Below are positions 1 to 64,000 of a stretch of DNA of 64,000 nt, one piece after another. Source of the DNA: Pseudoxanthomonas sp. NC8. GTDB lineage: Bacteria; Pseudomonadota; Gammaproteobacteria; Xanthomonadales; Xanthomonadaceae. The DNA is taken from NCBI GenBank assembly GCA_025232375.1, contig CP060419.1, positions 309,001 through 373,000 of the forward strand, given 5' to 3'. Position numbers and translations under genes: made by a program. Under the pieces are notes generated by a model. The model had not been told where the DNA came from. It searched no databases and was given only the letters and a program-made list of their open reading frames with translations. Position 1 is the stretch's first letter. Every line of letters begins with the position of its first letter.

Positions 1-332
1 CGGACCTGCTGGCCTACGCGCGGCGGCTGACCGGGGGCCTGGGGCGGCGTTGCTGGCCTTCCTCGCCTGGCCAATGCGCTGCTGGCGCTGTGCGCCGTGC
101 CCGGCGGGGTCCTGCACGCCGTCGGCGCCACGCCGCCGGTGGCGGTGTCGCATGCGGCCTTGGTCGTGGTTCGCCAACCTGCTCAACTACGGCCTTGGTC
201 GGCGGCTTCATGGCGGTCGAGTTCCAGTACCGCAAGCGCCATTTCCCGCGGCGTCCGTACCGCGACGGCGCCGATTTCGCGCGGCGGATGGCGGCGCTGG
301 GGCCGGGGTTCTGGCGCGACCTGCTGCGCTGA
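1..332 (+). CDS. COG4648-type inner-membrane protein, C-terminal part
   Basis: Only about the last 110 residues lie in the window. The chain ends with a hydrophobic segment (FANLLNYGLVGGFM) followed by a basic tail (EFQYRKRHFPRRPY) and stops at 330-332. The frame is broken in the first 60 bases and at two CCTTGG hexamers (158-163 and 193-198); reading both as CCTGG gives one continuous frame. Membrane proteins of this family recur in aryl-polyene and xanthomonadin clusters, but their biochemical role is unknown to me. The following gene is a FabZ-like dehydratase of the same cluster. The family assignment rests on recognising the C-terminal pattern; function is inferred only from context. Confidence 0.6.
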   Translation, partial: DLLAYARRLTGGLGRRCWPSSPGQCAAGAVRRARRGPARRRRHAAGGGVACGLGRGSPTCSTTALVGGFMAVEFQYRKRHFPRRPYRDGADFARRMAALGPGFWRDLLR

Positions 333-383
333 GGCCGCGTCCGCCGACGACGCTCCGCCAGCCGCTCGATATCCTTAGGTCCG

Positions 384-666
384 ATGCAGTTCTCCGTTCC
401 CCATGACCATCCCTGCCTTGGCCGGGCACTTCCCGGGACGGCCGCTGGTGCCCGGCGTGGTCCTGCTCGAGCGGGTACTCGAGGCGATCGAAGCCGCGCA
501 TGCGCCGACCGGACCGCTGCGCCTGCCGCAGGTGAAGTTCCTGCGCCCGCTGTTGCCGGACCGTCCTGCGCGGATCGTGATCGACGGCGCCGCGCCGCGC
601 TGGCGGTTCGAGGTGCACGGCGATGGCGGCGTGCTGGCACGCGGCGAGGTGGTGGCCGATGGTTGA
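384..666 (+). CDS. Hotdog-fold 3-hydroxyacyl-ACP dehydratase (ApeI/FabZ-like)
   Basis: This small hotdog protein of about 93 residues carries the FabA/FabZ signature GHFPGRPLVPGVVLLE near its start. In this family the His and a later acid dehydrate 3-hydroxyacyl-ACP, here presumably while the polyene chain is extended. I chose ATG 384 because reading CCTTGG at 416-421 as CCTGG joins MQFSVPHDHPCLAG directly to the signature; otherwise translation would begin at ATG 403, inside the motif region. It is shorter than FabZ (about 150 residues), as is usual for the small dehydratase of aryl-polyene clusters. The stop at 664-666 touches the GTG start of the next gene. Confidence 0.75.
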
Positions 667-1668
667 GTGCCCCGCCCGCCATGGAAGCGCCGCCCGGAAG
701 GCGGCACGCGCGGCTCGATCGCCCTGATCGCGGCGATCGCCCGGTACGGCGGGCGCCGGCTGGCGCGGCTGTGCCTGTATCCGATCACGTTGTACTTCCT
801 GTGCATGCGCGGCCCGGAACGCCGCGCCTCGCGCGCATGGCTGGCGCGGGTGCGCGGGCGCCGTGCCGGACTGTGGCTGGCGGCGCGGCACATCCATGCC
901 TTTGCCGCCACCATCCTCGACCGGCTGTTCCTTCTGGGTGGGCAGACCTGGCGCTACGACATCCGCGTGCATGGACTCGAGCCGCTGGCGGCGCTGGTCG
1001 ATCGCGGCCACGGCGCGCTGCTGTTCGGTTCGCACCTGGGCAGTTTCGACGCGCTGCGGGTGCTGTCGCGCCAGCGCCCCGGGTTGCAGGTGCGGATCGT
1101 GCTCGATCGAAGCCAGAACCCGGTGCTGACCGGGCTGTTCGATGCGCTGGACCCGTCGCTGGCGCAGGGCGTGATCGACGGCAGCCAGCCCGGCGCGGCG
1201 ATCGCGCTGGAGATCCAGCACGCGCTGGAGTCCGGTGCGCTGGTCGCGCTGCTGGTCGATCGTGCGCAGCTGCACGAGGACACCACGACGGTGCCGTTCC
1301 TCGGCCGGCCGGCCCGCTTTCCGCTCACGCCATGGCGGCTGGCCGCGGCGCTGCGCGCGCCGGTGCTGCTGTGCTTCGGCCTGTACGACGGCGGCAACCG
1401 CTACGACCTGCACTTCGAGCCGTTCATCGATCCGGCCACGGACGGCGCGCCGCCGCCGCGCGGCGAGCGCGGCCGCTGGCTGCACGAGCGCGTGGCCGCG
1501 TACGCGGCCAGACTCGAACACCACGCGCGGCGGGCGCCGCTGAACTGGTTCAACTTCTACGATTTCTGGAGCGACAGTCCCGATGAAGCGTCTGATGAGG
1601 TGTCGTCGGATTCCACGCCTGGCGGTCCTGCTGTGCGCGATCGCGCTGCCCTGCGCCGCGGCGCCTGA
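667..1668 (+). CDS. Lysophospholipid-acyltransferase-family (HtrB-like) acyltransferase
   Basis: The chain of about 306-333 residues starts at GTG 667, directly after the preceding stop. It contains the LPLAT/HtrB catalytic motif HX4D as SHLGSFD (His about 123, Asp about 128). Two hydrophobic stretches near residues 30-45 and 215-235 fit a membrane-associated enzyme. Aryl-polyene clusters carry such acyltransferases to attach the finished polyene to a lipid or glycolipid anchor; that role here is inferred. After FNFYDFWSD (about residue 305) the sequence looks unlike the family and runs 86 bases into the next gene, so the true stop is probably near 1583 and has been lost to an indel. Confidence 0.8.
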   Translation: MPRPPWKRRPEGGTRGSIALIAAIARYGGRRLARLCLYPITLYFLCMRGPERRASRAWLARVRGRRAGLWLAARHIHAFAATILDRLFLLGGQTWRYDIRVHGLEPLAALVDRGHGALLFGSHLGSFDALRVLSRQRPGLQVRIVLDRSQNPVLTGLFDALDPSLAQGVIDGSQPGAAIALEIQHALESGALVALLVDRAQLHEDTTTVPFLGRPARFPLTPWRLAAALRAPVLLCFGLYDGGNRYDLHFEPFIDPATDGAPPPRGERGRWLHERVAAYAARLEHHARRAPLNWFNFYDFWSDSPDEASDEVSSDSTPGGPAVRDRAALRRGA

Positions 1669-2250
1669 GCCGGCGCTGGACGCGGACTGGGTGCTGCGCG
1701 CGGTGGCGCGCCCGGCACCGAGCCGCACGCCGTTCGTCGAGCTGCGCGATTCGCCGATGCTCAGGCAGCCGCTGCGGCTGCAGGGCGAATACCGGCGCGA
1801 AACCGACGGCCGGCTGGTGCGGCAGGTGACCTCGCCGTATGCCGAGACCACCACGCTGGCCGCCGGCGAGGCGCTGGTCGAGCGTGCAGGCCGCGCGCCA
1901 CGCCGCGTCGCGCTGCAGCAGGTTCCGGAACTGGCCGCGATCCAGGCCGGTTTCGGCGCGCTGCTGGCCGGCGATCGCGAACTGCTGCAGAAGACCTACA
2001 GCGTGCAGGCCGGTGGCGTGCGCGGGCAGTGGCGGCTGCAGCTGCTGCCGCGCGAGCCACGCCTACCGCCGCGCTGCAGCGGATCGAACTGCACGGCCGC
2101 GGCGCCGAGCTGCGCTGCGTGGAAAGCCATCCGGCCAAGGGTGCGCCGCAGCTCACGCTGATGGCCGGGGCGGCCGTGGCGGCGGCCGGCATCGACGATC
2201 CGGCGGGACTGGCGGCGCTCTGCCACGGCGACCGCGGTCCGCAGCGATGA
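1583..2250 (+). CDS. LolA-like outer-membrane lipoprotein carrier of the polyene cluster
   Basis: An N-terminal signal peptide (basic MKRLMRCRR, then LAVLLCAIALPCAAA) precedes about 200 residues with the alternating LolA-like pattern (FVELRDSPMLRQPLRLQGEY, followed by LVRQVTSPY). Periplasmic LolA paralogues are standard members of aryl-polyene clusters, next to an MMPL exporter, and are thought to carry the product across the periplasm. The frame shifts near 2068 (CGCCTACCG); after it the chain continues as AAALQRIELHGRGAELRCVESH to the TGA at 2248-2250. That stop overlaps the ATG of the exporter (ATGA), indicating translational coupling. Confidence 0.75.
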
Positions 2251-5843: not shown

Positions 5844-7112
5844 CTACTTGTCGGTGCCGGCGGTCTGTCCGCTTTCGTCGTCTTCGCGCCGCGGCGAGCC
5901 GCGGCCGAGCAGGTCCAGCAGCGGCCCGGTCATCAGCGTGGTGGTCATCGCCAGCAGCAGCAGCAAGGTGAACATCTCCGGCCCGATCAGGCCGGCATCC
6001 AAACCGACCTTCATCACGATCAGCTCGATCATGCCGCGCGCGTTCATCAGCGAGCCGACCGCCAGGCTGTCACGGGTGCCGTAGCCGGACAGCTTCGCGC
6101 CAGGCCGCCGCCGAGCAGCTTGCCGGGCACGGCGACCAGCAGGATCAGCACGAAAGCACCGATGCCGGTGGCGCTGAACGCATCGGCGGTGGTGCCCATG
6201 CCGGCCAGGGCGAAGAACAGCGGCATCAGCAGCACCAGCGCCAGGTGTTCGATGCGCTCGACCAGGCTGTGGGTCAGGCGGTCGTCGCGCGGCAGGCAGG
6301 TGCCGAACAGGAACGCGCCGAACACCGCGTGCAGGTGCAGCCATTCGGTCGCCGCCGCACAGGCCAGTACGCCGACCAGCATTGCCGCCAGCACCGTGCC
6401 CGAGGCCTTGCCGTCGTTGGCATGGTGGCGCACCAGCCAGGCGAACAGCGGCCGCAGCAGGGCATATACGAGCACCAGCAGCAGGGCCAGCCCGGTGAGG
6501 GTTCGGGTAAGGCTCGACCAGCCGCCATCGCCGGTGAGCGCGACCAGCAGCGCCAGCACGATCCACGCGCCGACGTCGAGCAGGGCTGCGGCCGACAGCG
6601 CCAGGCGGCCGATCGGGGTCTGCTGCAGGCGGCGGTCCTTGAGGATCCGTGCCAGCACCGGGAATGCGGTCACCGACAGCGCCACCGCCAGGTACAGCGC
6701 GAACGACCAGAAGCCCACGCCCTTCGGCGCCAGCGGCCCGTGCAGCAGCGGCGCGACCGCCAGCGCCAGCCCGAACGGCAGCAGCGCCGACAGCGCGGCC
6801 ACCCGGGTGGCCGCCAGCACCTGCGCACGCGCGCCTTCCGGCGCGCGCAGTTCCGCGCCGATCACGAACATGAAGAGCACTAAGGCCCAGCGTCGAGAGC
6901 GAGGTCAGCCCCTGCAGCGAACCGGCCGGGAACAGCGCCGCGTGCAGGTCCGGCAGGGCCGCGCCGAACACGATCGGGCCCAGCAGCACGCCGGCGGCCA
7001 TCTCGCCGATCACCGGCGGCTGCCCCAGCCGCACCAGCAGCAGCCCGCACAGGCGCGCGGCCACCAGGATCACGGCGATCTGCAACAGCAACAACCCGGT
7101 CATCGACTGCAT
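5844..7112 (-). CDS. Cation:proton antiporter, CPA2 (Kef/NapA-like) family, without TrkA domain
   Basis: This integral membrane protein of about 422 residues has at least ten hydrophobic segments. Family features are GEMAAGVLLGP in the second helix, the SVTAFPVLARIL segment of the core, and LMNARGMIELIV near the C-terminus. It ends in a short hydrophilic tail with no TrkA-N domain. Breaks lie at 6882 (CACTAAGG; CACCAGG restores STLGLVLFMFVIG) and near 6100 (after GKLLGGG). It sits 91 bases downstream of the glycosyltransferase in the minus-strand arm of the pigment cluster; whether it belongs to the pathway functionally is unclear. Ion specificity cannot be read from sequence. Confidence 0.8.
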   Translation of the reverse strand: MQSMTGLLLLQIAVILVAARLCGLLLVRLGQPPVIGEMAAGVLLGPIVFGAALPDLHAALFPAGSLQGLTSLSTLGLSALHVRDRRGTARAGRRACAGAGGHPGGRAVGAAAVRAGAGGRAAAARAAGAEGRGLLVVRAVPGGGAVGDRIPGAGTDPQGPPPAADPDRPPGAVGRSPARRRRVDRAGAAGRAHRRWRLVEPYPNPHRAGPAAGARICPAAAAVRLAGAPPCQRRQGLGHGAGGNAGRRTGLCGGDRMAAPARGVRRVPVRHLPAARRPPDPQPGRAHRTPGAGAADAAVLRPGRHGHHRRCVQRHRHRCFRADPAGRRARQAARRRPGAKLSGYGTRDSLAVGSLMNARGMIELIVMKVGLDAGLIGPEMFTLLLLLAMTTTLMTGPLLDLLGRGSPRREDDESGQTAGTDK

Positions 7113-8730: not shown

Positions 8731-9938
8731 GCGCGGCCGAACACCAGCGAACAGTTGTTGCCGCCGAAGCCGAACGCGTTGTTCATCGCGTAGCGGATCG
8801 GCTGCTGCACCGTCGCAAAGCGCAGCTGCGGCCCGCACGCCGGATCGCGGACCTCGCTGTTGAGCGTGCCCGGCAGCAGGCCTTCCTCCAGCGCGAGCAG
8901 CGCGAATACCGATTCGACGATCCCGGCCGCGCCGAGCGTGTGCCCGGTCCAGCCCTTGGTTGAACCGGCATGCAGCGTATCGGGAACATCGCCGCCACGG
9001 CCTGGGCCTCGACCGCGTCGTTGGCCGGCGTGGCGGTGCCATGCAGGTTCAGGTAACCGATCGCCGCCGGCTCCAGCCCGGCACGTGCCAGTGCATCGGC
9101 CATCGCCTGGCGCGCACCCAGGCCCTGCGGATGCGGTGCGGACATGTGGTGCGCATCGCTGGATTCGCCGTAGCCGCACAACCACGCGCGCGCTGCGGTG
9201 GCGGGCTCGCGTTCGAGCAGGGCGAAGCCGCCGGCCTCGCCCAGGGACAGGCCGCGGCGCCGCGCATCGAAGGGCCGGCACGGTTCCGGCGAGACCAGCT
9301 GCAGCGAATTGAAGCCGTACAGCACGCTGCCGCACAGCGTATCCACGCCGCCGACCACGGCCGCATCGGCGATCCCCGCCTGCAGCATGCGCGCGGCCAG
9401 GGCAAAGACCTTGGCGCTGGAGGAGCAGGCGGTGGCCACGGTCATGCAGGGTCCGCGCGCGCCGGTGGCCAGTGCGACGAAATCACCGAGCGCGTGCGGC
9501 GCATGCACCAGCAGCCGGGCCAGCGCCTCCGGGAAGCGACCGTCCTGCTGCTGCGCATAGGCCGTTTCGGTTTCGCCGATGCTCGAGGTGGACGTGCCCA
9601 TCAGCACCGCCACCCGCGTGGCGCCGTGGCGCGCGACCGCGGCGCGGGTGGCCTCGATGAAGCCGTCCCGGGTGCAACGCACCCTGGCGGTAAGGCGATG
9701 GTTGCGCGATTCCCAGTCGGCCAGCGTCGCCGGCAGCGGCGCCTGTTCCAGGCCGTGGACCCGGCCGATCCAGCAGTCGAGCCGCGGTTCGGCGCCGAAA
9801 TCGTTGCGCCGCAGGCCGCTGCGGCCCCTGGCGCAGGGCCTCGCGTTGCGCGGGCAGTCCCGCTCCCAGCGCGGTGGTCGCGGTGTGGGCGGTGACGGCA
9901 AGCGGTTCGCTGCGTGGCGGTGGCGGGACGAGGTGCAA
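8727..9938 (-). CDS. Beta-ketoacyl-ACP synthase (aryl-polyene ketosynthase)
   Basis: This is a full ketosynthase of about 400 residues with all catalytic elements: the Cys in TVATACSSSAK, the first His in NLHGTATPANDA, and the Lys/His in STKGWTGHTLGAAG, ending NAFGFGGNNCSLVFG. It condenses malonyl-ACP units onto the growing aryl-polyene, presumably as a heterodimer with the adjacent factor. Breaks occur near 9830 (GGCCCCTGGCG) and 8990 (a lost C in TTCCCCGAT). No ATG is seen at the expected start; I place it at a TTG near 9938, with a few codons of uncertainty. It is the first gene of the minus-strand arm. Confidence 0.8.
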
Positions 9939-13300: not shown

Positions 13301-13659
13301 CGGCCGCCGGCGGGTGACGCCGCTGCTGTTGCTGCTAGGTGCGCGCGCCGAGCCGGGCGGCGCCTGCGACGAAGGCGTGGTCCTTGGCCGGACTGGAGCG
13401 GCTGCTGGACGAAGGCGTGACGCTGGAGGCGCAGGACCCGCGCGGCTTCGGCCCGCTGCACCTTACCGCGCTGCACGGCCTGCATGGCGTGGTCCAGCGC
13501 CTGCTGCGCGCCGGCGCCGACCCGGACCTGCGCGACACGCTCAACCGCACGCCCCGCGAGATCGCGGTGATGCGCGGTTTCGTCGACGTGGCCGCCGAGT
13601 TCGCGCCGGCGCAGTCCGGCGTGTCGATGGCCCGCTTCCTGCGCGAACCCCGCCGCTGA
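10360..13659 (+). CDS. Large ankyrin-repeat membrane protein
   Basis: About 1,100 residues. Residues 1-200 contain four or five hydrophobic helices; the rest is a solenoid of roughly 20 ankyrin repeats with the canonical G-x-TPLHxAA pattern ([43 protein letters not shown]). Ankyrin repeats bind proteins, so this looks like a membrane-tethered scaffold facing the cytoplasm; the partner is unknown. Frame breaks: 10847 (ATCCCTGGGC), 12720 (GTGGGCCCTGG), 13065, 13123 (CCTTAGCC for CCTGGCC), 13195 and 13382 (CCTTGG for CCTGG). Except near 13065 and 13195, these restore the repeat register when read as CCTGG. The stop is followed at once by a hairpin shared with the convergent antiporter gene. Confidence 0.82.
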
Positions 13660-13686: not shown

Positions 13687-15528
13687 CGGGCGGGCCGGGT
13701 CGCTGCCGGCCCCGGCGTCATCGGCGGCGCCGGTCGACGGTCCCGAATCGGCTTCGAACAGGCGCTGCAGGTCGGCGCGTGCCTCGCGCGCGCTCTGCAC
13801 CACCGCCGCGTCGTCGTCGTAGACCAGGTATTGCTCGCGCAGCAGCGCTTCGTCGTGCTCGCGGAAGCGCCGCACGTGGTCGGCGGCGACCGCCGGCGGT
13901 ACGCCCAGTTCCAGCAGCAGCCGTTCGCCCACCTCCAGGCTGGTGCCGAGCAGTTCGCGGAACGGTTCGGCGCCCAGGTCCATCAGCCGCCACGCATGCT
14001 GGCGGTTGCGCGCGCGCGCCATGATCTTCGCCTGCGGATACAGCCGCCGGATCAGCCGCACCGCGCGCAGGTTGCTGTCCGGGTCGTCGGTGCAGACCAC
14101 GAACAGGCGCGCATGCTGGGCGCCAGCCGCGCGCAGCAGGTCCGGCCGGGTCGGGTCGCCGTAGAAGATGCGCCCGCCGCTGCGACGCACGTCTTCCACC
14201 TGTTCGACGCTGCTCTCCAGCGCCACGTAGGGAATGCGCTGGGCCGCCAGCAGGCGGACCACGATCTGGCCGAAGCGGCCGACCCCGGCGATCACCACCT
14301 GCGGCGGCTGCGAGGCGGCATCGGGCACGTCGTAGCGGGCCGGTTCGGCGGGCGGATGGCGCGCGTCGTGGCGGCGCAGGCGCCCATCCAGCGCCAGCAG
14401 CAGCAGCGGCATCAGCGCCATCGACACGCCGACGATCGCCACCAGCCGGTCGTGGTTCTCGGCCGAGACCAGGCGCACGCGCAGCGCTTCTGGAACACCA
14501 CGAAGGCGAACTCGCCGCCCAGCCACAGGGTTCCACCCAGCATCAGCGCATGGCTGCCGGCCAGCCCGGCGGCGCGGCCGATGCCGAACAGCACCGCGAA
14601 CTTCACCAGCAGCAGCACCGCCACGCCGCCGGCGACCAGCGCCGGTTCGGCGGCGATGCGGTCCAGGTCGATGCCCATGCCCACGGCGATGAAGAACAGG
14701 CCCAGCAGCAGGCCCTTGAACGGCTCGATCTGCGATTCCAGCTCGTGCCGGTACTCCGAGTCGGCCAGCAGCACGCCGGCGATGAACGCGCCCAGGCCCG
14801 GGCTCAGGCCGGCCTGCTGCATGATCCAGGCGCTGCCGAGCACGGCCAGCAGCGCGGTCGCGGTAAACACCTCCGGCGCCTGGATCCCGGCGACCACGCG
14901 CAGGGCGCGGTGCATCAGCAGCCGCCCGCCGAACCAGACACCAGGGCCAGTGCGCCGAACGCATGGCCGACCATCGTCCAGGTCAGGGTCTCGTCCTTGA
15001 CCCCGCCCAGCAGCGGGATGACCGCCAGCAGCGGGATCGCGATCAGGTCCTGGAACAGCAGGATCGCGAACGCCAGCCGCCCGAAGTCGCTGTTGAGCTG
15101 CTGGCGCTCGGCCAGCAGCTGCAGACCCACCGCCGTCGACGACAGGGTAAGGCCGAGTCCGGCGACCAGCGCCCCTTCCATTGCACCTGGTAGGCCAGCA
15201 GGGCCCCGGCCAGCAGCAGGGCCGAGACCAGGACCTGGGTGCCGCCGGCGCCGAGCACGGTCCGGCGCATCAGCGCCAACCGCTTCGGCGACAGCTCCAT
15301 ACCGATCACGAACAGCAGCATGACCACGCCGATTTCGGACGCGCCGAGGATGCGGTCGGGGTCGCTCACCACGCCGATGCCGTCGGGACCCAGCAGCACG
15401 CCGGTGGTGGCAGAGGCCAGCACCGCCATAAGGCCGAGCTTGCGGAACAGCGGCACGGCGATGATCGCCGCGACCAGCAGGACTGGGGCCAGTTCCAGAC
15501 TCAGGCTGGAGGAGAAGGTCGCATCCAT
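13675..15528 (-). CDS. KefB/KefC-type monovalent cation:proton antiporter with TrkA-N domain
   Basis: About 617 residues: an N-terminal CPA2 membrane domain of twelve or so helices (GVLLGPDGIG, then STAVGLQLLAERQQ), followed by a TrkA-N/RCK nucleotide-binding domain starting VVIAGVGRFGQIVVRLLAAQ (GxGxxG). This layout matches KefB/KefC, which exchange K+ for H+ under control of glutathione adducts. Breaks: 15187, 14937 (TCTGG for TCCTGG) and 14490 (CCAGAAG for CCAGGAAG). All three sit at CCWGG positions and restore the family sequence when corrected. It is convergent with the ankyrin gene. Regulation by glutathione is known for the family and not visible here. Confidence 0.85.
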
Positions 15529-25320: not shown

Positions 25321-27328
25321 ATGCCGCCGCCCGCTCCGGACCGCCTTGCCTTCGACGACGTGGTCATCGACTTCGCCGGCCTGCGGCTGTCGCGCGCCGG
25401 GCGGGAGCAGCCGCTCGAACCCAAGGCCTTCGCCGTGCTCGCTTTGCTGGCCGGCTCGCCCGGCCGGGTATTCACCCGCGACGAGATCCTCGACGCGGTC
25501 TGGGGCCATCGGCACGTCACCCAGAGCGTGCTCAACCGGATCATGAGCCTGCTGCGGCAGACCCTGGGCGAGGACGCGCAGCATCCGCGCCTGCTGCATA
25601 CGGTGTACGGGATCGGCTACCGGTTCGATCTGCCCGGGTCCGGCTCGATCGGCGAGGCAGCAGGGGCGAACGATGCCGTCGCGACGGCGCTGGCTCCGGC
25701 GCCTCCAAGGCTGCGACCGGCCTTGGCGCGTCATCATCGCGACAATCGGGCTTCTGGCGATCGGGGCCATCGCCTTGGCTGCTGACGAAGGACGAGCCGA
25801 TCCAGCCGCCTGCCACGGCGATCGCGCCTTCCGCATCCGGTGCGCCTTCGCTGGCGGTGCTGCCGTTCGCAGACCTGTCCCGGGCCCATGATAAGAATAC
25901 CTGGCCGATGGCCTTGGCCGAGGACATCCTCAACCAGCTCGCCCAGTCGCAGTCGCTGCGGGTGGTGGGGCGCACGTCGAGTTTCTCGTTCAAGGGCAGG
26001 AACGAGGACCTGCGCGTCATCGGCAGCAAGCTCGGCGTCGATCACCTGCTGGAAGGCAGCGTCCGCCGCGACGGCGACCAGCTGCGCGTCACCGCGCAGC
26101 TGATCCGCACCGACGACGGCACCCACCTGTGGTCGAAGACCTATGCGCGCGAGCTGCGCGACGTCTTCGCGGTGCAGGAGGAAATCGCGCGCGATGTGGC
26201 GCTGGCTTTGAGCGTGAAGCTGGATGTGGCCCGGTTCAACCGCGAACAGGGAGGCACCACCAACATCGAGGCTTACGACCGCTTGTTGCGCTGGCGCAGC
26301 ATCATGATGCGCGGGCAACTGGACGCCGAACACGATCGCGAACGCCTGCAGCTGGCGCGCGGGATGGTGGCGCTGGATCCGCAATGCGTGCTGTGCCGCG
26401 ACCTGCTGGCGCGCTCGCTGGATTCCATGGCACGGGAGCTGGGCGAGGCGCGCGGCGGACCGCTGCGGGCCGAGGCGCAGCAGGTGCGCGCGGAGATCGC
26501 CCGCACCGCGCCGGACAGCTGGGTGGGCAAGCTGATCCGCGCCAATGCGCTGTGGCGCGAGGGCAGGCGTGCGGAAGCCATCGACCTTAGTAAGGCAGGT
26601 CGTGGATGCCGGGCCACCGACCAAGGAGCGGGTCTGGGATTACACCTACATGCTCTACGCGATGGGCCATCTGGAGGAAGTCACCGCGCTGGTGGAACAG
26701 GTCCGGGCGAACGAACCCATGGCGCTGTACCTCTCGCGCGACCTGCAGTACGACTACACCGCCACGCGCCGCTACGAGGACGCCGAGGCCGAATACCGGC
26801 GCGCCCGCGTCCTGGAGGGCAGCCAGCTGTCGCCGGATTCGCTGGCCTTCTTCCGCCAGCTGGCGGGCAAGCGCGCCGGCGGCATGGAGGAGCTGCGCGC
26901 GCTGCATGCCCGCCTGCTGCGCCAGTCACCGGAGTTCGACACGCCGTTCTTCCGCGAGCTCGGCGCGGTGCTGGGCGATCGTGAGGCGATGCTCGCCCGT
27001 GTGCGCAAGGCGCTGGAGGACGAGAGCTATGGGGGAGGCAGCAGCGCCGCCTATCTATGGACCAACGTGGCCGATGCGCTGGGCGATGCCGACCTAGCCG
27101 TGGCCGCGATGCGCCGGGACCCTGGCGGGCTGGGAAGGATTCGAGCAGGGGGCCATGGCGCCGCCGCCGTATGTCGCGCTCTGGAACGCGCCGTACTCGA
27201 ACGTGCGCGCGCATCCGGACTTCAGGAAGCTGCTGGCCGAAACCGGCGTGGTCGATTACTGGCGCCAGACCGGCCGCTGGGGCGACGGCTGCGCGCCGGT
27301 GGGTGCTGAAGACTTCCAGTGCCGGTGA
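25321..27328 (+). CDS. CadC-like membrane transcriptional regulator with TPR-type sensor domain
   Basis: About 669 residues: an N-terminal OmpR-type winged helix (LEPKAFAVLALLAGSPGRVF, then NRIMSLLRQTLGE and VYGIGYRF), one TM helix (RVIIATIGLLAIGAIAWLLT), a TolB/FlgO-like segment (SLAVLPFADLS, LLEGSVRRDGDQLRVTAQLI) and C-terminal TPR-like helices. Such ToxR/CadC-type proteins bind DNA from the inner membrane and sense in the periplasm. Breaks at 25721 and 25773 (both CCTTGG for CCTGG; together they restore the TM helix exactly), 26588 (CCTTAGTAAGG for CCTGGTGCGG) and 27125 (GACCCTGG). A strong terminator follows. The likely target is the divergent TPR gene. Confidence 0.8.
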
Positions 27329-27438: not shown

Positions 27439-29127
27439 TCATCTCTTCATGGAAGAGAAGAATTCATCATTCGACTTGGTGTTCTTCATCTTGTCGAGCA
27501 TGAACTCCATCGCGCCGATCTCGTCCATCGGGTGCAGCAGCTTGCGCAGGATCCAGATCTTCTGCAGCAGCAGCTCCGGCTCGATCAGCAGGTCCTCGCG
27601 GCGGGTGCCCGAGCGGTTGATGTCGATGGCCGGGAACACGCGCTTTTCGGCGATGCGGCGGGACAGGTGCACTTCGGAGTTGCCGGTGCCCTTGAACTCC
27701 TCGTAGATCACCTCGTCCATCTTGCTGCCGGTGTCGATCAGGGCGGTGGCGATGATCGACAGCGAGCCGCCTTCCTCGACGTTGCGCGCCGCGCCGAAGA
27801 ACCGCTTCGGGCGGTGCAGCGCGTTGGCGTCCACGCCGCCGGTCAGCACCTTGCCCGAGCTGGGCACGACGTTGTTGTAGGCGCGGGCAGGCATGGGTGA
27901 TCGAGTCGAGCAGGATGACCACGTCCTTCTTGTGCTCGATAAGGCGCTTGGCCCGCTCGATCACCATTTCGGCGACCTGCACGTGGCGCGCGGCCGGCTC
28001 GTCGAAGGTCGAGGAGATGACCTCGCCGCGCACGGTGCGCTGCATTTCGGTCACTTCCTCGGGGCGCTCGTCGATCAGCAGCACGATCAGGTGCACGTCA
28101 GGATGGTTGGTCGTGATCGCGGTGGCGACCTGCTGCATCATCATCGTCTTGCCCGCCTTGGGCTGGGAGACGATCAGCGCGCGCTGGCCCTTGCCCTGCG
28201 GGGCCATCAGGTCGAGGATGCGGCCGGTGATGTCCTCGGTCGAACCGTCGCCGCGCTCCAGGCGGAAACGCCTCCGCGGGAACAGCGGCGTGAGGTTCTC
28301 GAACAGGGTCTTGTTCTTGGACGCTTCCAGCGGCTCGCCGTTGATCGTGTCGACCACCGACAGGGCGAAGTAGCGCTCACCGTCCTTGGGCCAGCGGATG
28401 CGGCCGCTCAGGTGGTCGCCGGTGCGCAGGTTGAAGCGGCGGATCTGGCTGGGCGAGATGTAGGTGTCGTCCGGGCCGGTAAGGTAGCTGGCCTCGGCCG
28501 CGCGCAGGAAGCCGAAGCCGTCCGGCAGGATTTCCAGCACGCCGTCGGCGGCCACGCCCTCGCCGTGGCGGGTCAGCACCTTGAGCAGGGCGAAGATCAC
28601 GTCCTGCTTGCGGGCGCGGGCCACGCCTTCGTGGATCTGCAGCTGCTCGGCGATTTCCAGCAACTTGTGCGCCGGCATCCGCTTGAGGTCGCCCAGCGAA
28701 TACTGGGGAAGCCTTCCGGCACGCTCGGGTGCGGGCGCGGCGGGTGCGGCATCTGGTTGTTGCCGTTGTCGTCCTGCATGCCACCGTCGTCGCGGAAGCC
28801 GCGGTTGCGCTCGCGGTCGCGCCGGTTGCGGAAGCGGTCGCGGCGGTTGTTGCGGCCACCGCCCTCGCGCTGGTCGCCGGCGTCGCCGCCTTGCGGCTGG
28901 CCCTGCTGGCTGCCGGAGTGGTCGGAGGCGGACTGGCTGGCGGGGTTTTCGCCACCGGACTGGGTCGCGGCGGGGGCTTGGGGCGGGGGAGGAGCCGAAG
29001 CGGCGGTCGCCGGCGCGGCGGCCTCGCCGGTACCGGCGTCGGCCGGCTTGCTTACGCGCTTGCGCGCACGCTTCTCGGCGGGTGCGTCATCGCTCCCGGG
29101 CGCTTCAGGCAGGGTGTTCTCGGACAA
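27439..29127 (-). CDS. rho: Transcription termination factor Rho with long basic N-terminal extension
   Basis: Rho core: N-terminal helix bundle ([15 protein letters not shown]), cold-shock-type RNA-binding fold ([30 protein letters not shown]), Walker A ([12 protein letters not shown]), Walker B ([12 protein letters not shown]), Q-loop region ([13 protein letters not shown]), and C-terminus [19 protein letters not shown]. About 140 extra residues precede the core, rich in Ala/Pro/Gln and then Arg/Asn/Gly/Asp ([20 protein letters not shown]), as in Rho of other high-GC bacteria, where such inserts add RNA binding. Breaks at 28706 (run of C) and 27893 (CCCATGCCTGCC where ACCCGCCTGGCC is required, giving DSITRLARAYNN). 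Rho is essential, so these breaks cannot be real inactivation. It is downstream of trxA on the same strand. Confidence 0.93.
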
Positions 29128-29350
29128 GGGTGTGATTCCTCGCTGGTAGATGCGAGCGCCCGATGCGGGCGTTGGATCCTGTGTGGGATGGTGGTCCGGC
29201 GATGGCCGGACGGGACGCGGCAGCGGATTCTGCGGCCGGTTGGAGCGACACTAACACCGGCTGCCGCGCACCGGCAAGCGCGCCGGTGGCATGGTCGGGG
29301 ACAGTTCAGGCGCGGACGGCCGGACTGGCCGTCGCGCCGGGGGCAGCGGC

Positions 29351-32496: not shown

Positions 32497-33466
32497 GTAC
32501 GGGTGCGATCAGTGCGAAGGCGGTCCCCGCGTCCACGGCGCCGTCGCGCCTGCGGATCTGGTTCGACCAGCACCTGCATGGCCTTGGCCTTCAGCCTCGG
32601 CCGCGCGCTGCGCAAGCCGTGGGCCACGCTGCTGACCGTGGCGGTGATGGGCGTGGCCTGGCGTTGCCACTGGGCCTGTCGATCGTGATGGACAACCTGC
32701 GCCACTTCGCCGGCAACGTGCAGCAGTCGCGCGAGATCAACCTGTTCCTGAAGGCGGACGTCGATGCGGCGGCCGCGGCGAAGCTGGCCGACACCCTGCG
32801 CGGCCGTGGCGACGTGGCCGCGGTGGAGCTGCGCACCCCGGAGCAGGCGATCGCCGGGTTCCGCGAAAGCAGCGGTATGGGCGAAGCGCTCGACGCGCTG
32901 GGCGAAAACCCGCTGCCGACCCTGCTGGTGGTCACGCCAGGCGACGGCGGCAGCGCCGCGGACGCGCGCCTGGTGTCCACGCTCGAAGCCCTGCCGCAAG
33001 CCGACCTATGGTCCAGCACGACGCGGTCTGGCGGCAGCGCCTGGACGGCTGGCTGGGATTCGGCCAGCGCGTGGTCCAGGTACTGTCGCTGCTGCTGGGC
33101 CTCGGCGCGCTGCTGGTGGTCGGCAACACCGTCCGCCTGGACATCCAGTCGCGGCGCGAGGAGATCGGCGTGCTGCAGCTGCTGGGGGCCAGCGACGGCT
33201 TCATCCGCCGTCCATTCCTTTATCTGGGCGTGTGGTACGGACTGGGCGCGGGACTGCTCGCGCTGGGCCTGATCGCGGGCGCCGGATGGGCGCTGCGCGG
33301 GCCGCTGGCCGCACTCAGTGCCAGCTATGGGAGCCAGTTCGCACTCGCGGGTCTGGATGCAATGCACTCGGCAATGGTATTGCTGGGGACTGTCCTGCTC
33401 GGTTGGCTGGGGGCCGGTGCGGTTACCGGACACTTCCTGCGCCAGACCCGGCCCACGGAGACCTGA
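32493..33466 (+). CDS. ftsX: Cell-division permease FtsX
   Basis: About 324 residues with four TM helices: one after the N-terminal region (PWATLLTVAVMGVALALPLG after correction), then a periplasmic domain, then three C-terminal helices (VLSLLLGLGALLVVGNTVRL, YLGVWYGLGAGLLALGLIAG, MVLLGTVLLGWLGAGAVTGH). RRREEIGVLQLLGAS-type sequence between helices 2 and 3 is diagnostic. Breaks at 32582 (CCTTGG), 32657 (GCCTGGCG for GCCCTGGCG) and 33007 (CCTATGG for CCTGG); each is repaired by writing CCTGG. It couples FtsE ATP hydrolysis to periplasmic murein-hydrolase activators. Its stop overlaps the next gene as TGATG. Confidence 0.92.
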
Positions 33467-36573: not shown

Positions 36574-37451
<878 letters not shown>

Positions 37452-37506: not shown

Positions 37507-37530
37507 GCGTTGGGGCGCCACGAAAAAGGA

Positions 37531-37550
37531 ACGGCCCCTTGCGGGGCCGT
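37531..37550 (-). terminator. Intrinsic terminator of the Met/Cys-rich gene
   Basis: Arms ACGGCCCC and GGGGCCGT around a TTGC loop. On the minus strand the hairpin is followed by CC and then five T residues (37523-37527 complement), and it sits 28 bases past the stop of the Met/Cys-rich reading frame. This placement is independent support for that frame being the real gene. Confidence 0.8.
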
Positions 37551-37577
37551 CCTTGCATCGGGCGGAGTGCGCCGCGC

Positions 37578-38027
37578 TCAGCGCATGCACACCATCATCG
37601 GCGTGCCGCCGCACACCATGGTCATCGGCATGCCGCAGCCCATCATGCGGTTCATCGCGTCGCAGCACATCTTCATCATGTCCATGCCCATCATCCCGGT
37701 GGGCTTCATCATGCAGACCATGCCGCCGGCCTCCATGGTGCAGCTCATCTCCGGCATCATCGGCATGCCGCAGCAGGCCATCATCGGCATGCCGCCGCAC
37801 ATCATCCCGCACGGGGTGCCGCAAGCCATCATCGACATCATCAGGTCGCAGCACGCCTGGAGCATCTCCATGCTCGAGCCCTCGGCGGGCTTCATCACGC
37901 ACATCATGCCCTCGGCCGTCATGGAGCAATCCATGTGGCACATCATCGGCATCATCGTGGCCATCGGCATCGACGGCATCTGCATCGGCATGCCGGCCAT
38001 CGGCATCATGTTCATCGCGGTGTTCAT
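37578..38027 (-). CDS. Met/Cys-rich protein with internal duplication (unknown function)
   Basis: From ATG 38027 the protein has 149 residues, 53 Met (36%) and 17 Cys (11%). It contains two related units of about 50 residues: CSMTAEGMMCVMKPAEG then LQACCDLMMSMMACG, and CTMEAGGMVCMMKPTG then KMCCDAMNRMMGCG, each followed by CGG(M/T)PMM. No signal peptide or TM helix is evident. Such density of thioether and thiol ligands suggests binding of soft metals (Cu+, Ag+, Hg2+) or a methionine-based oxidant sink; this is inference. An upstream in-frame ATG at 38078 would add 17 residues. A proper terminator follows the stop. Because the DNA is repetitive, other frames are also open here. Confidence 0.65.
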   Translation of the reverse strand: MNTAMNMMPMAGMPMQMPSMPMATMMPMMCHMDCSMTAEGMMCVMKPAEGSSMEMLQACCDLMMSMMACGTPCGMMCGGMPMMACCGMPMMPEMSCTMEAGGMVCMMKPTGMMGMDMMKMCCDAMNRMMGCGMPMTMVCGGTPMMVCMR

Positions 38028-38078
38028 GGGAGATCTGGGGCGGTGGTGAAGGCAAATTACGATCGGCAATGACATCAT

Positions 38079-38251
38079 GCGCGTCCGGAATTAGCGTTTC
38101 AAGCATTTGATAATAAAGGGGAAATTTCCGTTATCGCGAACGTCCGTCCGTTTTCCCGGATGGGTTATATGGCTATGTCCAGCGGTTGTTTCCCCGCCGC
38201 CGGCGACGGCGGCAGATTGGGTGTCACGCTTCCCGCCGATGCCCGACCGCG
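38079..38251. promoter_or_regulatory. Divergent regulatory region with GGAAATTTCC palindrome
   Basis: The segment between the minus-strand Met/Cys-rich gene and the plus-strand small gene has an AT-rich core (ATTTGATAATAAAGGGG around 38104-38121) and a perfect 10-base palindrome GGAAATTTCC at 38120-38129. It could hold back-to-back promoters sharing an operator; the XRE-cupin protein encoded 220 bases away is a candidate ligand. Confidence 0.4.
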
Positions 38252-38455
38252 ATGCACATTCCCGACTCCGCCACTGTTTACGACGCCGAGCAGTACCGCC
38301 GCCGCAAGGCGCTGCGCGAGTGCGGCGGCAGCAGCAGCCGGCGCGAGTTCCTGTGGGTACAGCCCGGTTTCGGGGCCGTGCAGCTGGTGGTGTTCCGTCC
38401 CGCGCCGCCGACGGCCGCCGAGGCGCTGCGCTCGGCCGCACGGCGCACCGGCTGA
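38252..38455 (+). CDS. Small unknown protein upstream of XRE-cupin regulator
   Basis: A 67-residue reading frame, MHIPDSATVYDAEQYRRRKA onward, with a basic middle and a hydrophobic stretch (FLWVQPGFGAVQLVVFR). I do not recognise a family. It ends 16 bases before the regulator ATG at 38472, so it is probably the first gene of a two-gene unit. Its GC-rich third positions are consistent with coding. No signal peptide is seen. Confidence 0.45.
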   Translation: MHIPDSATVYDAEQYRRRKALRECGGSSSRREFLWVQPGFGAVQLVVFRPAPPTAAEALRSAARRTG

Positions 38456-38471
38456 CGGTCCGCACGGCGCG

Positions 38472-39092
38472 ATGGCCGACGGGCTGGACGTGGCCCCGGT
38501 GCGCGAGCCGGCGGCGGACGACCTTGCCGCGCTCGTGGCCCGGCGCTTGGCCGGCCTGCGGCGCGAGCGGCGGCTGTCGCTGGATGCGCTGGCCCGCAGT
38601 TCGGGGGTCAGCCGGGCGATGCTCTGGCAGATCGAGCAGGGACGCAGCGCGCCGACCTTGAAGGTGCTGGCCCGCATCGCCGCTTCACTGGATGTGCCGC
38701 TGGCCGACCTGCTGCAGGGTCCGGGGCGGGGCGCGCGTAAGGCAGAGGTCCTGCGTTCGGGCGAATCAAGCAGCTGGTCTCGGCCGACGGCGGCTTTGTC
38801 TCGAGAGCGCTGTTCCCGTTCAGCGGCAGCCATGCAGTGGAGTTCTACGAGATCCGGCTGGCGCCGGGGACGGAGGAGCGGGCGCTGCCGCATGCGGCCG
38901 GCACGGTCGAGAACCCGGTGGTCCACGCCGGCCGGGTCGAGGTCGAGGTCGCTGCCGAGGTGTATCGGCTGGAGGCCGGCGACGCGATCCGCTTCCGCGC
39001 CGACCAGCTGCATACCTACCGCAATTCCGGCGATGCGCCCGCGCTGGTGTACCTTGGTGATGGCCTACGCCAACCCGCTCGAATACGGCTGA
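38472..39092 (+). CDS. XRE-family regulator with C-terminal cupin domain
   Basis: About 206 residues: an N-terminal Cro/C1 helix-turn-helix (LAGLRRERRLSLDALARSSG, then SRAMLWQIEQGRSAPTLKVL) and a cupin domain (YEIRLAPGTEERALPHAAGT, VYRLEAGDAIRFRADQLHTY). This architecture is that of PuuR-like regulators that sense a small ligand in the cupin barrel. Breaks near 38764 and at 39052 (CCTTGG for CCTGG, restoring ALVYLVMAYANPLEYG). The ligand is unknown; the neighbouring Met/Cys-rich gene or the small upstream gene may be its targets. Confidence 0.8.
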   Translation: MADGLDVAPVREPAADDLAALVARRLAGLRRERRLSLDALARSSGVSRAMLWQIEQGRSAPTLKVLARIAASLDVPLADLLQGPGRGARKAEVLRSGESSSWSRPTAALSRERCSRSAAAMQWSSTRSGWRRGRRSGRCRMRPARSRTRWSTPAGSRSRSLPRCIGWRPATRSASAPTSCIPTAIPAMRPRWCTLVMAYANPLEYG

Positions 39093-39128
39093 GCCGCGGG
39101 AGCGGCCGTCGCCCGTGCAACAGCCACC

Positions 39129-42663: not shown

Positions 42664-43411
42664 ATGGCCGAGGTTGAAAAACGCATCGCCCTGCTGATCG
42701 ACGCCGACAACGCACCGGCGGGCAAGATAGACGTGATCCTGGCCGAGGTGGCACGCCACGGCGTGGCCAACGTGCGCCGTGCCTACGGCAACTGGAAGAG
42801 CCCCGGCCTCAAGGGCTGGGAAGCGGTCCTGCATGAGTACGCGATCCGCCCGATCCAGCAGTTCGCCTATTCGTCGGGCAAGAACGCCTCGGACATGGCG
42901 ATGGTCGTCGACGCGATGGACCTGCTCTACGCGCGCAACCTGGATGGCTTCGCCATCGTCTCCAGCGACGCCGACTTCACCCCGATGGTGATGCGGCTGC
43001 TCACCGACGGGGTCAAGGTCTACGGCTTCGGGGAGCAGAAGACGCCCAAGCCGTTCGTCAATGCCTGCTCCAAGTTCACCTATATCGAAGCACTGGGTGC
43101 GCCAGCGGAGAACGGCAAGGCCACCAGTGCCACGAAGAAGGGCGCGCAGGAGCTGCGTGGCGATACGCGCCTGGTGCAGATGCTGCGCAGCGCGGTGGAG
43201 ACCACCAGCGGCGACGATGGCTGGGCGAACCTCAGCGTGGTCGGCAGCCAGATCAGCAATAAGGCGTCCTTCGATTCGCGCAACTACGGGTACGGCAAGC
43301 TCAGCGACCTTGGTCAAGGCCAGTGGGCTGTTCGAGGTCAAGCAGGAAGGCAAGACCGTGCTGGTGCGGGACAAGCCGGGACGGCGCGTGGCGAAGAAGA
43401 CGGCGGACTGA
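42664..43411 (+). CDS. NYN-domain (LabA/DUF88-like) protein with C-terminal OST-HTH/LOTUS domain
   Basis: About 249 residues. The N-terminal NYN nuclease-fold has the acidic residues in ALLIDADNAPAGK, SDMAMVVDAMDLL and FAIVSSDADFTPMV; the C-terminal domain (TRLVQMLRSAVETTSGDDGW, then WANLSVVGSQISN) is a LOTUS-type winged helix. Members are thought to be RNA-binding or RNA-cleaving. A single break at 43308 (CCTTGG for CCTGG) restores GKLSDLVKASGLFEVKQEGK. It is transcribed alone, divergent from the transporter. Confidence 0.85.
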
Positions 43412-55630: not shown

Positions 55631-56842
55631 GCGCGCAGCGCCGGCACAGCCTGCAGCGTGCGTTGGCGCGGCGCTGGATGGCATTCGCCGCGCTGTTGTC
55701 GGTGCTGCTGGCGGGCAATGCTTTGCTGCTGCTGTTCCTGCTGGAAGACAGCTTCATCGATCGGCACCTGCGCGCGGTGGCGGCGACGGTGGTCGAGCCG
55801 GTGGATGCATCGCCCGGTCTTCCGGCGAGGTTCCAGGCGTTGGCGTGGCCGGCGGTACCGGACGACATCGGCGCGCGCCTTGGCCAGCAGGAAGCACGGT
55901 GCGATCGTCGAGTTCCGCCGCGACGATGGCAGCTACGTACATGCGTTGTCTGCGCGCACCGCCAGCGGCCAGCCGTTCGTGCTGGTCTACGACGTGACCG
56001 ACGAGCTGACCGTGAACCCGCGGCTGCCGGCCGGGCTGGGTTATGCGCTGGCATGGCTGGTGCTTTCGCTGCTGGTCGCATATCTGCTGGCGCGCACGTT
56101 CGTGGCCGGCATCACCCGGCGCGCGCGGGCATTGATGGCCCAGGTGCTGGCCAGCCCCGATCCGCAGGCGCTGGAGGCGCTGGCGCAGCAGGAGCCGGTG
56201 GAAGAACTGGCCGGACTGCTGCGCCTGCATGCCGGGGCCTGGCGCGAGCAGCAGTCGGCGGTGGAGCGCGAGCGCGAGACGCTGGCGTTCCTGGCCCATG
56301 AGCTGCGCACGCCGCTGCAATCGGCGCGGACCAGCGTGGCGCTGCTGTCGCAGTCGCCCACGCATGGACCGGCGCTGGACCGCCTGCAGCGCGCGGTGGA
56401 ACGGCTGACCCGTGCCAGCAACGCGATCCTGTGGCTGGCCAGCGACGCGCCGCTGCCGCAGGTACGCACGCACACAGCCACCCGTCTTCCCGTCCTGGTC
56501 GAGGAACTGCGACCGCTGGCGGAAGTGCGCGGCCAGCACATCGAATTGCGGATCGCGCCGGACCTGCACTGGGATGCACCGTGGGACGTGGTCGAGACGC
56601 TGCTGGCCAACGTGCTGTTGAATGCGATCCAGCATGGCGGCGAAGGTGCGATCGTGCTCGAAGCCGATGCGTGCGTGATGCTCGTGCGCAATGCGCCGGA
56701 GGTGGCCGGTTCGCCCGGTTTCGGGCTGGGCCTGCGGATCGTGCAGCGGCTGGCGGCACGGATCGGCTGGCAGGTGGCGATGGTGCAGGACCGGTACGAG
56801 GTCCGCTGCGAGCTGCGCTGGGCGTCTGCGCCCCGCGGCTAG
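55627..56842 (+). CDS. Sensor histidine kinase (QseC-like)
   Basis: About 405 residues. TM1 (WMAFAALLSVLLAGNALLLL), a short periplasmic sensor of about 100 residues, TM2 (YALAWLVLSLLVAYLLARTF), then a dimerisation H-box (FLAHELRTPLQSART) and a HATPase domain with N-box (LLANVLLNAIQHGG) and a glycine box (GFGLGLRIVQRLAAR). A break at 55878 (CCTTGG for CCTGG) restores GARLASRKHGAIVEFRRDDG in the sensor. The ATPase domain is compact and lacks a clear D-box; kinase activity is assumed. It forms a pair with the preceding regulator. Confidence 0.85.
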
Positions 56843-59245: not shown

Positions 59246-59289
59246 CGATCAAGTCTCCGGGTGGGGCCGTTCGCGGTGGCCTCCCGTGG

Positions 59290-59317: not shown

Positions 59318-59368
59318 CAAGTCTGGAGAGGGACCGCGGTGTTCAGACCGCGCCGGCGCCGCGAAGTT

Positions 59369-60922: not shown

Positions 60923-60945
60923 TCCGGCCGGCGCCCGGCGGGTGC

Positions 60946-61659: not shown

Positions 61660-61845
61660 GCCGCCAGCGTAGCCGTCCCGGGGCCGCCGCGCGGGACTGC
61701 GAAGCGTTCGCGGGATGCCGGCGGAACACTGCGAGCGCCAGGCCGGGACACCGGGACGACGCACGCGCAGGCTATAGTTCGCCCCCTGCGATACGGTCCA
61801 CGCGGCCGCGCATCGCCCTCCCGTCCGCACCGTGCGAGCCGCCCC

Positions 61846-63220: not shown

Positions 63221-63255
63221 GGTGCGGCGGCGTGCAGGAATGCGCCGCCGGCGAT

Positions 63256-63283
63256 GGAGCCGCGACCACCAGGCCGCGGCTCC
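63256..63283. terminator. Hairpin between convergent gshA and lipoprotein gene
   Basis: Nine-base arms GGAGCCGCG and CGCGGCTCC with a 10-base loop in the 69-base gap between two convergent genes. There is no T-run, so it may be a weak bidirectional terminator. Confidence 0.5.
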
Positions 63284-63289
63284 CTGCCA

Positions 63290-63972
63290 TCACGGCAGCA
63301 GGTGGTTGCTCACGACCTGCTTGCCGTCCAGCGACACCGATGCGTAGCCGTTGTTCTTGACGTCGTTGGCGGTAAGGCGGCCTTCCAGGTCCAGCCGCAG
63401 CGTGTGCACGTCACTGAAGGCGCCCGGCGCTTCCATAGGCGCACGCCGTTCCAGCGGTAGCTGCTGTAGACCGGGTCCAGCGAAGGCTTGAGTCCCTCGA
63501 TGGTGCCGGACAGCGCGGCTGCGTCGACCTTCGACAGCGGCACCATAAGGTAGTCCTCCAGGCGGAAGCTGGCCGCATCGCCGCTGACCGTCAGCTCGAT
63601 GTCGTAGGGGGCGCCGAACTTGCCGGTCGCCAGATCCAGCTGCTGTCCGACCAGCTTCCGTGCATCAGCCGGATTCTGGTAGTCGACGGTGCAGACCTGC
63701 AGCTTGCCGTCGGCATCGAAAGACGAGGTGATCTCCGACACCAGCGTGGCCGGAGCCAGCGCATCGGCCACGGCGCGGAAGCACACGTCGGGACCTTCGT
63801 TGAAGGTCAGGGCGGGGGCAGGGGACGGCGCGGCCGGGGAAGCGGCGGCAGTCGCGGGTGTGGCAGGCGCGGTCGACGTGGCGGCCGCGTCCGGCTCGGA
63901 CGGGGTGGCCTTCTCGCCGCAGGCGGTCAGGCCAAGGGCCAGCGCGGTGCCCAGCAGGCAAGCATGGACCAT
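63290..63972 (-). CDS. Predicted lipoprotein
   Basis: About 227 residues. The signal peptide ends in a lipobox ([12 protein letters not shown]), then an Ala/Pro/Thr linker and a globular domain with two Cys ([11 protein letters not shown] and [14 protein letters not shown]) that could form a disulfide. No named family is recognised; similar lipoproteins occur in xanthomonads. A break at 63436 (CGCCTATGG for CGCCTGATGG) separates the last 50 residues; corrected, the chain continues [20 protein letters not shown] and ends [20 protein letters not shown]. The ATG may not be the true start if the gene extends past the window edge, but the signal peptide supports it. Confidence 0.7.
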
Positions 63973-64000
63973 GGGGAAGGCGTGCGCACGGTCGGGGTCA

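What the first reader, a model, noticed from the sequence alone, without database searches (positions are those of the whole stretch)
1..64000. Frame breaks cluster at CCWGG: fingerprint of an unmodelled DNA modification
About two thirds of the genes are broken by 1-2 base indels, mostly where the protein family requires CCTGG or CCAGG. Seen directly: CCTTGG for CCTGG at 158, 193, 416, 13382, 17192, 19912, 20557, 21850, 25721, 25773, 32483, 32582, 36895, 39052, 43308, 54833, 55128 and 55878. CCTTAG occurs at 6882, 13123, 22990, 26588 and 48026; CCTATGG or CTATGG at 33007, 34046 and 36319; CCCATGG at 41322, 50384 and 56999. Lost bases (CTGG, CCTG, CCGG) occur at 14937, 22112, 22683, 30227 and 60540. 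Writing CCWGG restores the family sequence each time, twice in a row at 25721/25773 to rebuild one TM helix. Many CCWGG sites are unaffected. Consensus errors of this kind are known for native nanopore reads at modified cytosines, so the host probably has a Dcm/EcoRII-like CCWGG methyltransferase. Genes called broken here are most likely intact.
Basis: partly seen in the sequence, partly recalled or inferred. Interest (0 to 1): 0.85.

Follow-up and report, generated by a model that had tools for sequence, protein, structure and literature searches.

The report
Sequencing errors at methylated CCWGG sites
Most of the broken genes here are probably not broken in the cell: the genome seems to have been read wrongly at the five-letter word CCWGG, which this bacterium very probably marks with methyl groups as part of a restriction-modification system.

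Summary
Against six same-genus relatives (Pseudoxanthomonas-like) the window has 108 clean frame-changing indels in 47,951 aligned bases (2.25 per kb); the relatives themselves have 0.06-0.72 per kb. Among all pentamers CCAGG/CCTGG ranks first: 22 of 140 conserved sites carry an indel, CCSGG 0 of 50; with 400 kb more, 72 of 507 against 5 of 242. No mutational process follows contig orientation, so these are consensus errors. The only C5-methyltransferase locus found lies between Vsr and an MvaI/BcnI-family endonuclease and is itself split into three pieces. A relative with that locus intact lacks the signature. Known artefact, new instance; reads were not available.

The parts
1..64000 (.). 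Stretch with dense consensus errors; window = G000:C1:309001-373000 of a 3.54 Mb single contig with completeness 57.12%
27442..29202 (-). Transcription termination factor Rho, a core gene (recalled), needing more than one frame here; the frame changes near codon 264 of the 403-aa ORF 27467-28678
158..163 (+). Example of the insertion form (CCTTGG): frame shift against 4 of 4 relatives, CCWGG in 4 of 4
416..421 (+). Same form: shift in 4 of 4, CCWGG in 4 of 4 relatives
13382..13387 (+). Same form: shift in 6 of 6, CCWGG in 5 of 6 relatives
25721..25778 (+). Two insertion-form sites 52 bases apart (25721, 25773): shift in 2 of 2 and 3 of 3, CCWGG in 2 of 2 and 2 of 3 relatives
36895..36900 (+). 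Same form: shift in 4 of 4, CCWGG in 4 of 4 relatives
43308..43313 (+). Same form: shift in 3 of 3, CCWGG in 3 of 3 relatives
33006..33011 (+). CTATGG form: shift in 5 of 5, CCWGG in 5 of 5 relatives
9687..9695 (+). GGTAAGG (9689-9695) where 6 of 6 relatives have GGCCAG and 5 of them GGCCAGG: the double miscall, beside a two-base insertion
55878..55883 (+). Listed CCTTGG site with a frame shift but CCWGG in 0 of 2 relatives: the link to CCWGG rests on analogy only

Best explanation
The frame breaks are assembly consensus errors, not mutations. The host very probably methylates a cytosine of CCWGG with the C5-methyltransferase of a Vsr / methyltransferase / MvaI-like restriction locus at G000:C1:2517105-2520356 (outside the window). 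In native, strand-by-strand (nanopore-type) reads the modified base shifts the signal, and a basecaller not trained on it miscalls CCTGG-strand reads as CCTTGG (insertion) and CCAGG-strand reads as TAAGG (double substitution), plus rarer forms. A long-read-only consensus kept these, favouring the contig's + strand. Shown: the motif enrichment, the CCWGG/CCSGG contrast, the orientation-specific forms and bias, and the locus. Inferred: that the modification is m5C, that this enzyme makes it, that the reads were nanopore, and that each read strand has its own miscall.
For: Unbiased pentamer ranking puts CCAGG/CCTGG first in the window (22 of 140) and in window plus 400 kb (72 of 507, p 7.3e-57; CCSGG 5 of 242). 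Of clean frame-changing indels, 44 of 108 in the window have CCWGG in most relatives, against 0 of 60 over the six relatives as focal genomes. Reference-free: in 464 kb of own DNA CCAGG/CCTGG is the most depleted pentamer (2172 seen, 3371 expected from four relatives) and CCTTA/TAAGG the most enriched (339 seen, 52 expected). SCCTTACS occurs 117 times forward and 837 reverse in the own genome; the 20 relatives searched have 15-179 forward and 22-166 reverse, the most uneven being G031 64/107 and G001 26/42; among the other 394 of 395 family genomes sampled, no total exceeds 290 by my reading of the table. TAAGG:CCTTA on + is 408:89 in positive-skew and 135:26 in negative-skew stretches. At aligned sites, contig-+ CCAGG gives TAAGG 22 / CCAAGG 3, contig-+ CCTGG gives CCTTGG 21 / CCTTA 5, p 8e-7. 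Locus: Vsr PF03852, PF00145 in three pieces, PF15515 211.7 bits against cut-off 25; nearest solved structure MvaI E 2.2e-5, BcnI 0.04. Precedent: Wick 2019 reports about 70% of consensus errors of then-current ONT basecallers in CCAGG/CCTGG for K. pneumoniae (PMC6591954, passages).
Against: No reads, raw signal or sequencing metadata were available. 44 of 108 clean frame-changing indels have no CCWGG in any relative; 18 of the 108 lack CCWGG but have a homopolymer of 3 or more in most relatives. With CCWGG neighbourhoods masked the residual indel rate (0.0043 of pentamers) is above that of the window controls (0.0011-0.0025), so there is general read error too. CCSGG shows 5 indels of 242 in the larger set, above the masked average (5 of 233 there, p 0.0034 uncorrected). 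The larger set uses only two relatives; with just one relative as reference, G012 and G006 as focal show 9 of 746 and 10 of 649 at CCWGG, 13 of 483 and 19 of 528 at CCSGG. G006 carries the locus intact without the signature, so the gene alone does not produce the pattern; this fits but does not prove a dependence on sequencing method. One of 42 stretches has the strand bias reversed (8:9 at 493001). The methyltransferase's specificity was not read from its sequence.
Confidence: 0.92

Rival explanations
1. Ordinary unpolished long-read noise (homopolymers and random indels) with no role for DNA modification.
For: A residual error rate remains away from CCWGG (masked); 18 of 108 clean events sit at homopolymers without CCWGG.
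Against: The top motif is CCWGG, with CCSGG far lower: 72 of 507 against 5 of 242. CCTGG holds no run of three or more bases.
Confidence: 0.03
2. CCWGG is modified, but by another enzyme or with another chemistry (for example N4-methylcytosine), not by the C5-methyltransferase at 2.518 Mb. (Overlaps the best explanation except for the enzyme.)
For: Specificity was inferred from errors, not from the enzyme; frame breaks could hide a second methyltransferase. M.MvaI is an N4-cytosine enzyme from recall; no call confirmed it.
Against: PF01555 gives no match in the own genome while it is found in 11 of 14 control genomes; PF00145 gives one locus only, linked to Vsr, which acts on deaminated m5C (recalled), and to an MvaI-like endonuclease. 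Other methyltransferase families were not searched.
Confidence: 0.08
3. Real mutations at methylated CCWGG: m5C deamination, failed Vsr repair or another mutator process.
For: CCWGG is a known m5C deamination hotspot (recalled), and Vsr is itself split in this assembly.
Against: Deamination gives C-to-T, not single-base insertions or CC-to-TA. The bias follows contig orientation in both replichores, which no cellular process can know. It would also break rho.
Confidence: 0.01
4. Genome-wide gene decay (a degenerating or host-restricted lineage).
For: 24 of 39 genes multi-frame, completeness 57.12%.
Against: Size 3.54 Mb lies within the 2.3-4.5 Mb of the 16 same-genus genomes listed, rho is hit, and breaks concentrate at one pentamer.
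Confidence: 0.01

Closest known systems
Dcm-motif consensus errors of nanopore assemblies (Wick et al. 2019, PMC6591954; passages seen)
   Same: Errors concentrate in CCAGG/CCTGG; [quoted passage not shown]
   Different: There K. pneumoniae with Dcm and about 70% of errors in the motif; here a Pseudoxanthomonas-like genome without a Dcm orthologue at that locus, 44 (CCWGG in most relatives) to 64 (in any) of 108 clean frame-changing indels, and a contig-orientation bias in the final consensus. The passages seen do not discuss such a bias.
Modification-mediated errors / Modpolish (PMC10687267; passages seen)
   Same: Errors at lineage-specific pentamers; amplification of the DNA is reported to improve the genomes.
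   Different: Motifs there are GCAGC and GCTGG in Listeria, mostly mismatches rather than indels.
Strand-dependent ambiguous positions in ONT data (PMC11610573; passages seen)
   Same: The wrong base is seen mainly in reads of one orientation; linked to methylation.
   Different: Mostly A/G or T/C ambiguity with minimal shared motif RA/TY, not CCWGG indels.
MvaI / BcnI restriction-modification family
   Same: PF15515 endonuclease above cut-off beside a cytosine methyltransferase; closer to MvaI than to BcnI by phmmer.
   Different: Here a PF00145 C5-methyltransferase and a Vsr gene; M.MvaI is N4-specific from recall. Cleavage not tested.

Membership tests
Modification-induced (Dcm-type) consensus error | Errors concentrated in CCAGG/CCTGG and not in the matched CCSGG | tested here: met
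   72 of 507 against 5 of 242; window alone 22 of 140 against 0 of 50
Modification-induced (Dcm-type) consensus error | Error forms that depend on which strand of the site faces the contig's + direction | tested here: met
   22/3 against 5/21, p 8e-7
Modification-induced (Dcm-type) consensus error | Errors vanish with amplified DNA or short reads; native nanopore input | not testable with these tools
   no reads or metadata held
Dcm (solitary enterobacterial CCWGG methyltransferase) orthologue | NCBIfam NF007772 (PRK10458) above its cut-off | tested here: not met
   intact G006 homologue scores 60.3 bits against 710; own pieces 33.7 and 18.3
Dcm (solitary enterobacterial CCWGG methyltransferase) orthologue | No cognate restriction endonuclease beside it | tested here: not met
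   PF15515 endonuclease next to it
C5-cytosine methyltransferase superfamily (PF00145; TIGR00675, named dcm) | Profile above cut-off | tested here: met
   PF00145: three own pieces at 65.5, 67.2 and 45.1 bits, cut-off 22. TIGR00675: own pieces 62.1, 60.6 and 28.9, each below the cut-off of 100.65; intact G006 homologue 154.9
Type II R-M system of the MvaI/BcnI kind | PF15515 endonuclease | tested here: met
   211.7 bits, cut-off 25, profile 1-227 of 227
Type II R-M system of the MvaI/BcnI kind | Adjacent cytosine methyltransferase | tested here: met
   PF00145 pieces over the cut-off; one open frame in G006
Type II R-M system of the MvaI/BcnI kind | Recognition of CCWGG (MvaI) rather than CCSGG (BcnI) | tested here: inconclusive
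   errors point to CCWGG; phmmer nearer MvaI; no cleavage or methylation assay
Vsr very-short-patch repair endonuclease | TIGR00632 above cut-off | tested here: inconclusive
   own two pieces 46.6 and 82.2 bits, cut-off 97.85; PF03852 61.1 and 39.4, cut-off 27; intact G006 homologue 149.9 for TIGR00632

The most novel reading that the evidence does not exclude
The orientation-biased error spectrum (insertions where the contig + strand reads CCTGG, TAAGG where it reads CCAGG) is a reference-free fingerprint by which active DNA modification and its target motif can be read from a bare assembly, without reads. Here it assigns CCWGG to an uncharacterised locus pairing a C5-methyltransferase and Vsr with an MvaI-like endonuclease.
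Probability: 0.4. Interest if true: 0.45.

Novelty: new member of a known kind. Interest (0 to 1): 0.32.

Why it matters
This genome should not be used for claims about pseudogenes, gene loss or protein variants: more than half of the tested genes in the window are affected, and frame-preserving TAAGG miscalls put wrong residues into genes that look intact. The low completeness (57.12%) is probably an effect of the errors (inference). On the positive side, the errors point to an active CCWGG modification system, and the CCTTA/TAAGG strand imbalance is a one-line screen for similar assemblies; by eye it singled out this genome among 395 sampled from the family.

Tried and rejected
A second modified motif: after masking CCWGG neighbourhoods no pentamer stood out strongly; best in the combined set was CGCCC, 7 of 225, p 5.6e-5 uncorrected. 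An N4/N6 methyltransferase: PF01555 no match in the own genome; no other N4/N6 family was searched. Replication strand as cause of the asymmetry: the bias has one sign in both skew classes. Gene strand: in the window TAAGG is 17 in + genes and 16 in - genes, CCTTA 6 and 0; CCTTGG/CCAAGG is 19/14 in + genes and 7/1 in - genes; numbers are small (34 gene intervals made from the 39 rows, four overlapping rows dropped and two merged; + genes cover about twice the bases). Unfiltered indel counts are less clean than those quoted: 125 frame-changing in 47,951 bases for the window against 0.54-1.34 per kb for five relatives. Source of the genome: a compost study with R9.4.1 reads, Guppy, Flye and Medaka mentions Pseudoxanthomonas (PMC11794307, passages); no link to this genome was shown. 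A 24 kb piece of the window against plasmids gave only short matches at 71-86% identity. Papers: listings only for the searches; passages only of PMC6591954, PMC10687267, PMC11794307, PMC11610573, PMC4081073 and PMC3804486 (the last gave nothing on M.MvaI chemistry).
Full report
Setting. The window is bases 309,001-373,000 of a 3,541,173-base single-contig genome with completeness 57.12%. Six of them aligned to the window over 15 to 59 kb each, mostly in order.

The breaks are features of this assembly. Multiple alignment in 800-base chunks covered 62 of 80 chunks with at least two relatives. 125 of 141 window-specific indels are not multiples of three. Counting clean events only (no gaps nearby in relatives), 108 are frame-changing, 104 of them one or two bases long, in 47,951 bases. 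With the relatives as focal genome and the window left out: G012 2 in 31,743, G008 14 in 33,969, G002 14 in 39,515, G001 10 in 19,370, G014 15 in 20,929, G004 5 in 12,381. Genes needing more than one frame are 24 of 39, 21 of 38 and 13 of 18 for the G002, G012 and G001 gene sets; the same sets tested in other relatives gave 0 to 5 such genes of 13 to 37. The gene sets were picked mechanically and include a few overlapping or doubtful ORFs. Rho is among the broken genes.

They concentrate at CCWGG. Ranking all pentamers conserved in the relatives by how often the window has an indel inside, CCAGG/CCTGG is first: 22 of 140, p 5.5e-19; the next four overlap it. CCSGG: 0 of 50. Controls at CCWGG: 0 of 107, 0 of 122, 0 of 158 (G012, G008, G002 as focal). 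Adding 400 kb of the own genome against G012 and G006 (107 of 500 chunks usable): 72 of 507 against 5 of 242 (p 2.4e-8). Of the 108 clean events 44 have CCWGG in most relatives (4.9% of random positions do) and 64 in any (11.5%); 3 have CCSGG in most (3.2%). Over the six relatives as focal genomes, 0 of 60 clean events have CCWGG in most others and 6 of 60 in any. So CCWGG explains roughly half; the remaining 44 are homopolymer or other read error, or sites where only this lineage had CCWGG.

At conserved CCAGG/CCTGG sites the commonest altered form is TAAGG (27 of 507), just ahead of CCAAGG and CCAGC (24 each; the latter is a single substitution and may be natural). Without any alignment, CCTTA/TAAGG is the most over-represented pentamer in 464 kb of own DNA (339 against 52 expected) and CCAGG/CCTGG the most under-represented (2172 against 3371). 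Such errors leave frames open and change residues silently.

SCCTTACS is found 117 times forward and 837 times reverse in the own genome; the 20 relatives searched are near balance, the most uneven being 64/107 and 26/42. Among the other 394 of 395 genomes sampled from the family, the largest total is 290 (5.5 Mb, 145/145) and the most uneven large counts are like 138/88, 145/95 and 96/134, by my reading of the table. In 884 kb of own DNA, TAAGG:CCTTA on the + strand is 566:120 and CCTTGG:CCAAGG 499:309, while 1.04 Mb of relatives give 54:61 and 330:303. TAAGG exceeds CCTTA in 41 of 42 own stretches (8:9 in the other). The sums are 408:89 in 31 stretches of the positive-skew half and 135:26 in 9 of the negative-skew half; two stretches near the switch (6:3, 17:2) were left out of the sums. 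At aligned sites, contig-+ CCAGG yields TAAGG 22 and CCAAGG 3; contig-+ CCTGG yields CCTTGG 21 and CCTTA 5. This is what is expected if each strand has its own miscall and the consensus leaned to reads in contig direction. A cellular process would follow replication or transcription, not the arbitrary direction of a contig. Why the consensus leaned one way is not shown; an orientation-sensitive polisher is my guess.

The modifying enzyme. PF00145 finds one locus, at 2.5179-2.5191 Mb, in three matches. Its pieces lie in alternating frames; upstream is Vsr (PF03852, two pieces), downstream an MvaI_BcnI endonuclease (PF15515, 211.7 bits). The nearest solved structures are MvaI (E 2.2e-5) and BcnI (0.04). 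PF01555 has no match. PF15515 occurs in 3 of 41 genomes searched, all of this genus: own, G006 and G002. G006 holds Vsr, methyltransferase and endonuclease as open frames, and that methyltransferase is no Dcm orthologue (60.3 bits against 710). G006 has no error signature (CCWGG 10 of 649 against 1645 of 83,162 pentamers overall; SCCTTACS 49/46): the gene alone is not enough, which fits an artefact of how G000 was sequenced. The enzyme blamed for the errors is thus itself among the genes they seem to break.

Comparison. Wick et al. 2019 report about 70% of consensus errors of then-current ONT basecallers in CCAGG/CCTGG in K. pneumoniae, implying models trained without Dcm methylation (PMC6591954, passages). 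Modification-mediated errors at other pentamers (PMC10687267, passages) and strand-dependent ambiguity (PMC11610573, passages) are also in print. The case is therefore a new instance of a known artefact, with an unusually clear orientation bias. In the passages seen and in the listings I did not see that bias used as an assembly-only sign of modification; this is a limited search of one library.

Verdict. Observation right in the main, overstated in detail; interpretation supported. The genes called broken are most likely intact in the cell.

Noticed in passing
G000:C1:2517105-2520356 (L121:7105-10356): Vsr, C5-methyltransferase and MvaI/BcnI-family endonuclease in a row; the first two are split across frames in this assembly.
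   Followed up: yes
L205:6049-9469 (G006): Intact version of the same locus in a same-genus genome that shows no CCWGG error signature.
   Followed up: partly
L206 (G002:C31:345001-360000): A more distant PF15515 endonuclease (129 bits) with a Vsr-like gene and a different C5-methyltransferase nearby; the own endonuclease had no tblastn match there at 1e-3, so its specificity may differ.
   Followed up: no
window about 37515-39125: Stretch without a long aligned counterpart (over 300 bases) in the six relatives' regions compared; holds the listed site 39052. Possibly lineage-specific.
   Followed up: no
window, positions away from CCWGG: 44 of 108 clean frame-changing indels have no CCWGG in any relative; 18 of the 108 lack CCWGG but have a homopolymer of 3 or more in most relatives.
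   Followed up: partly
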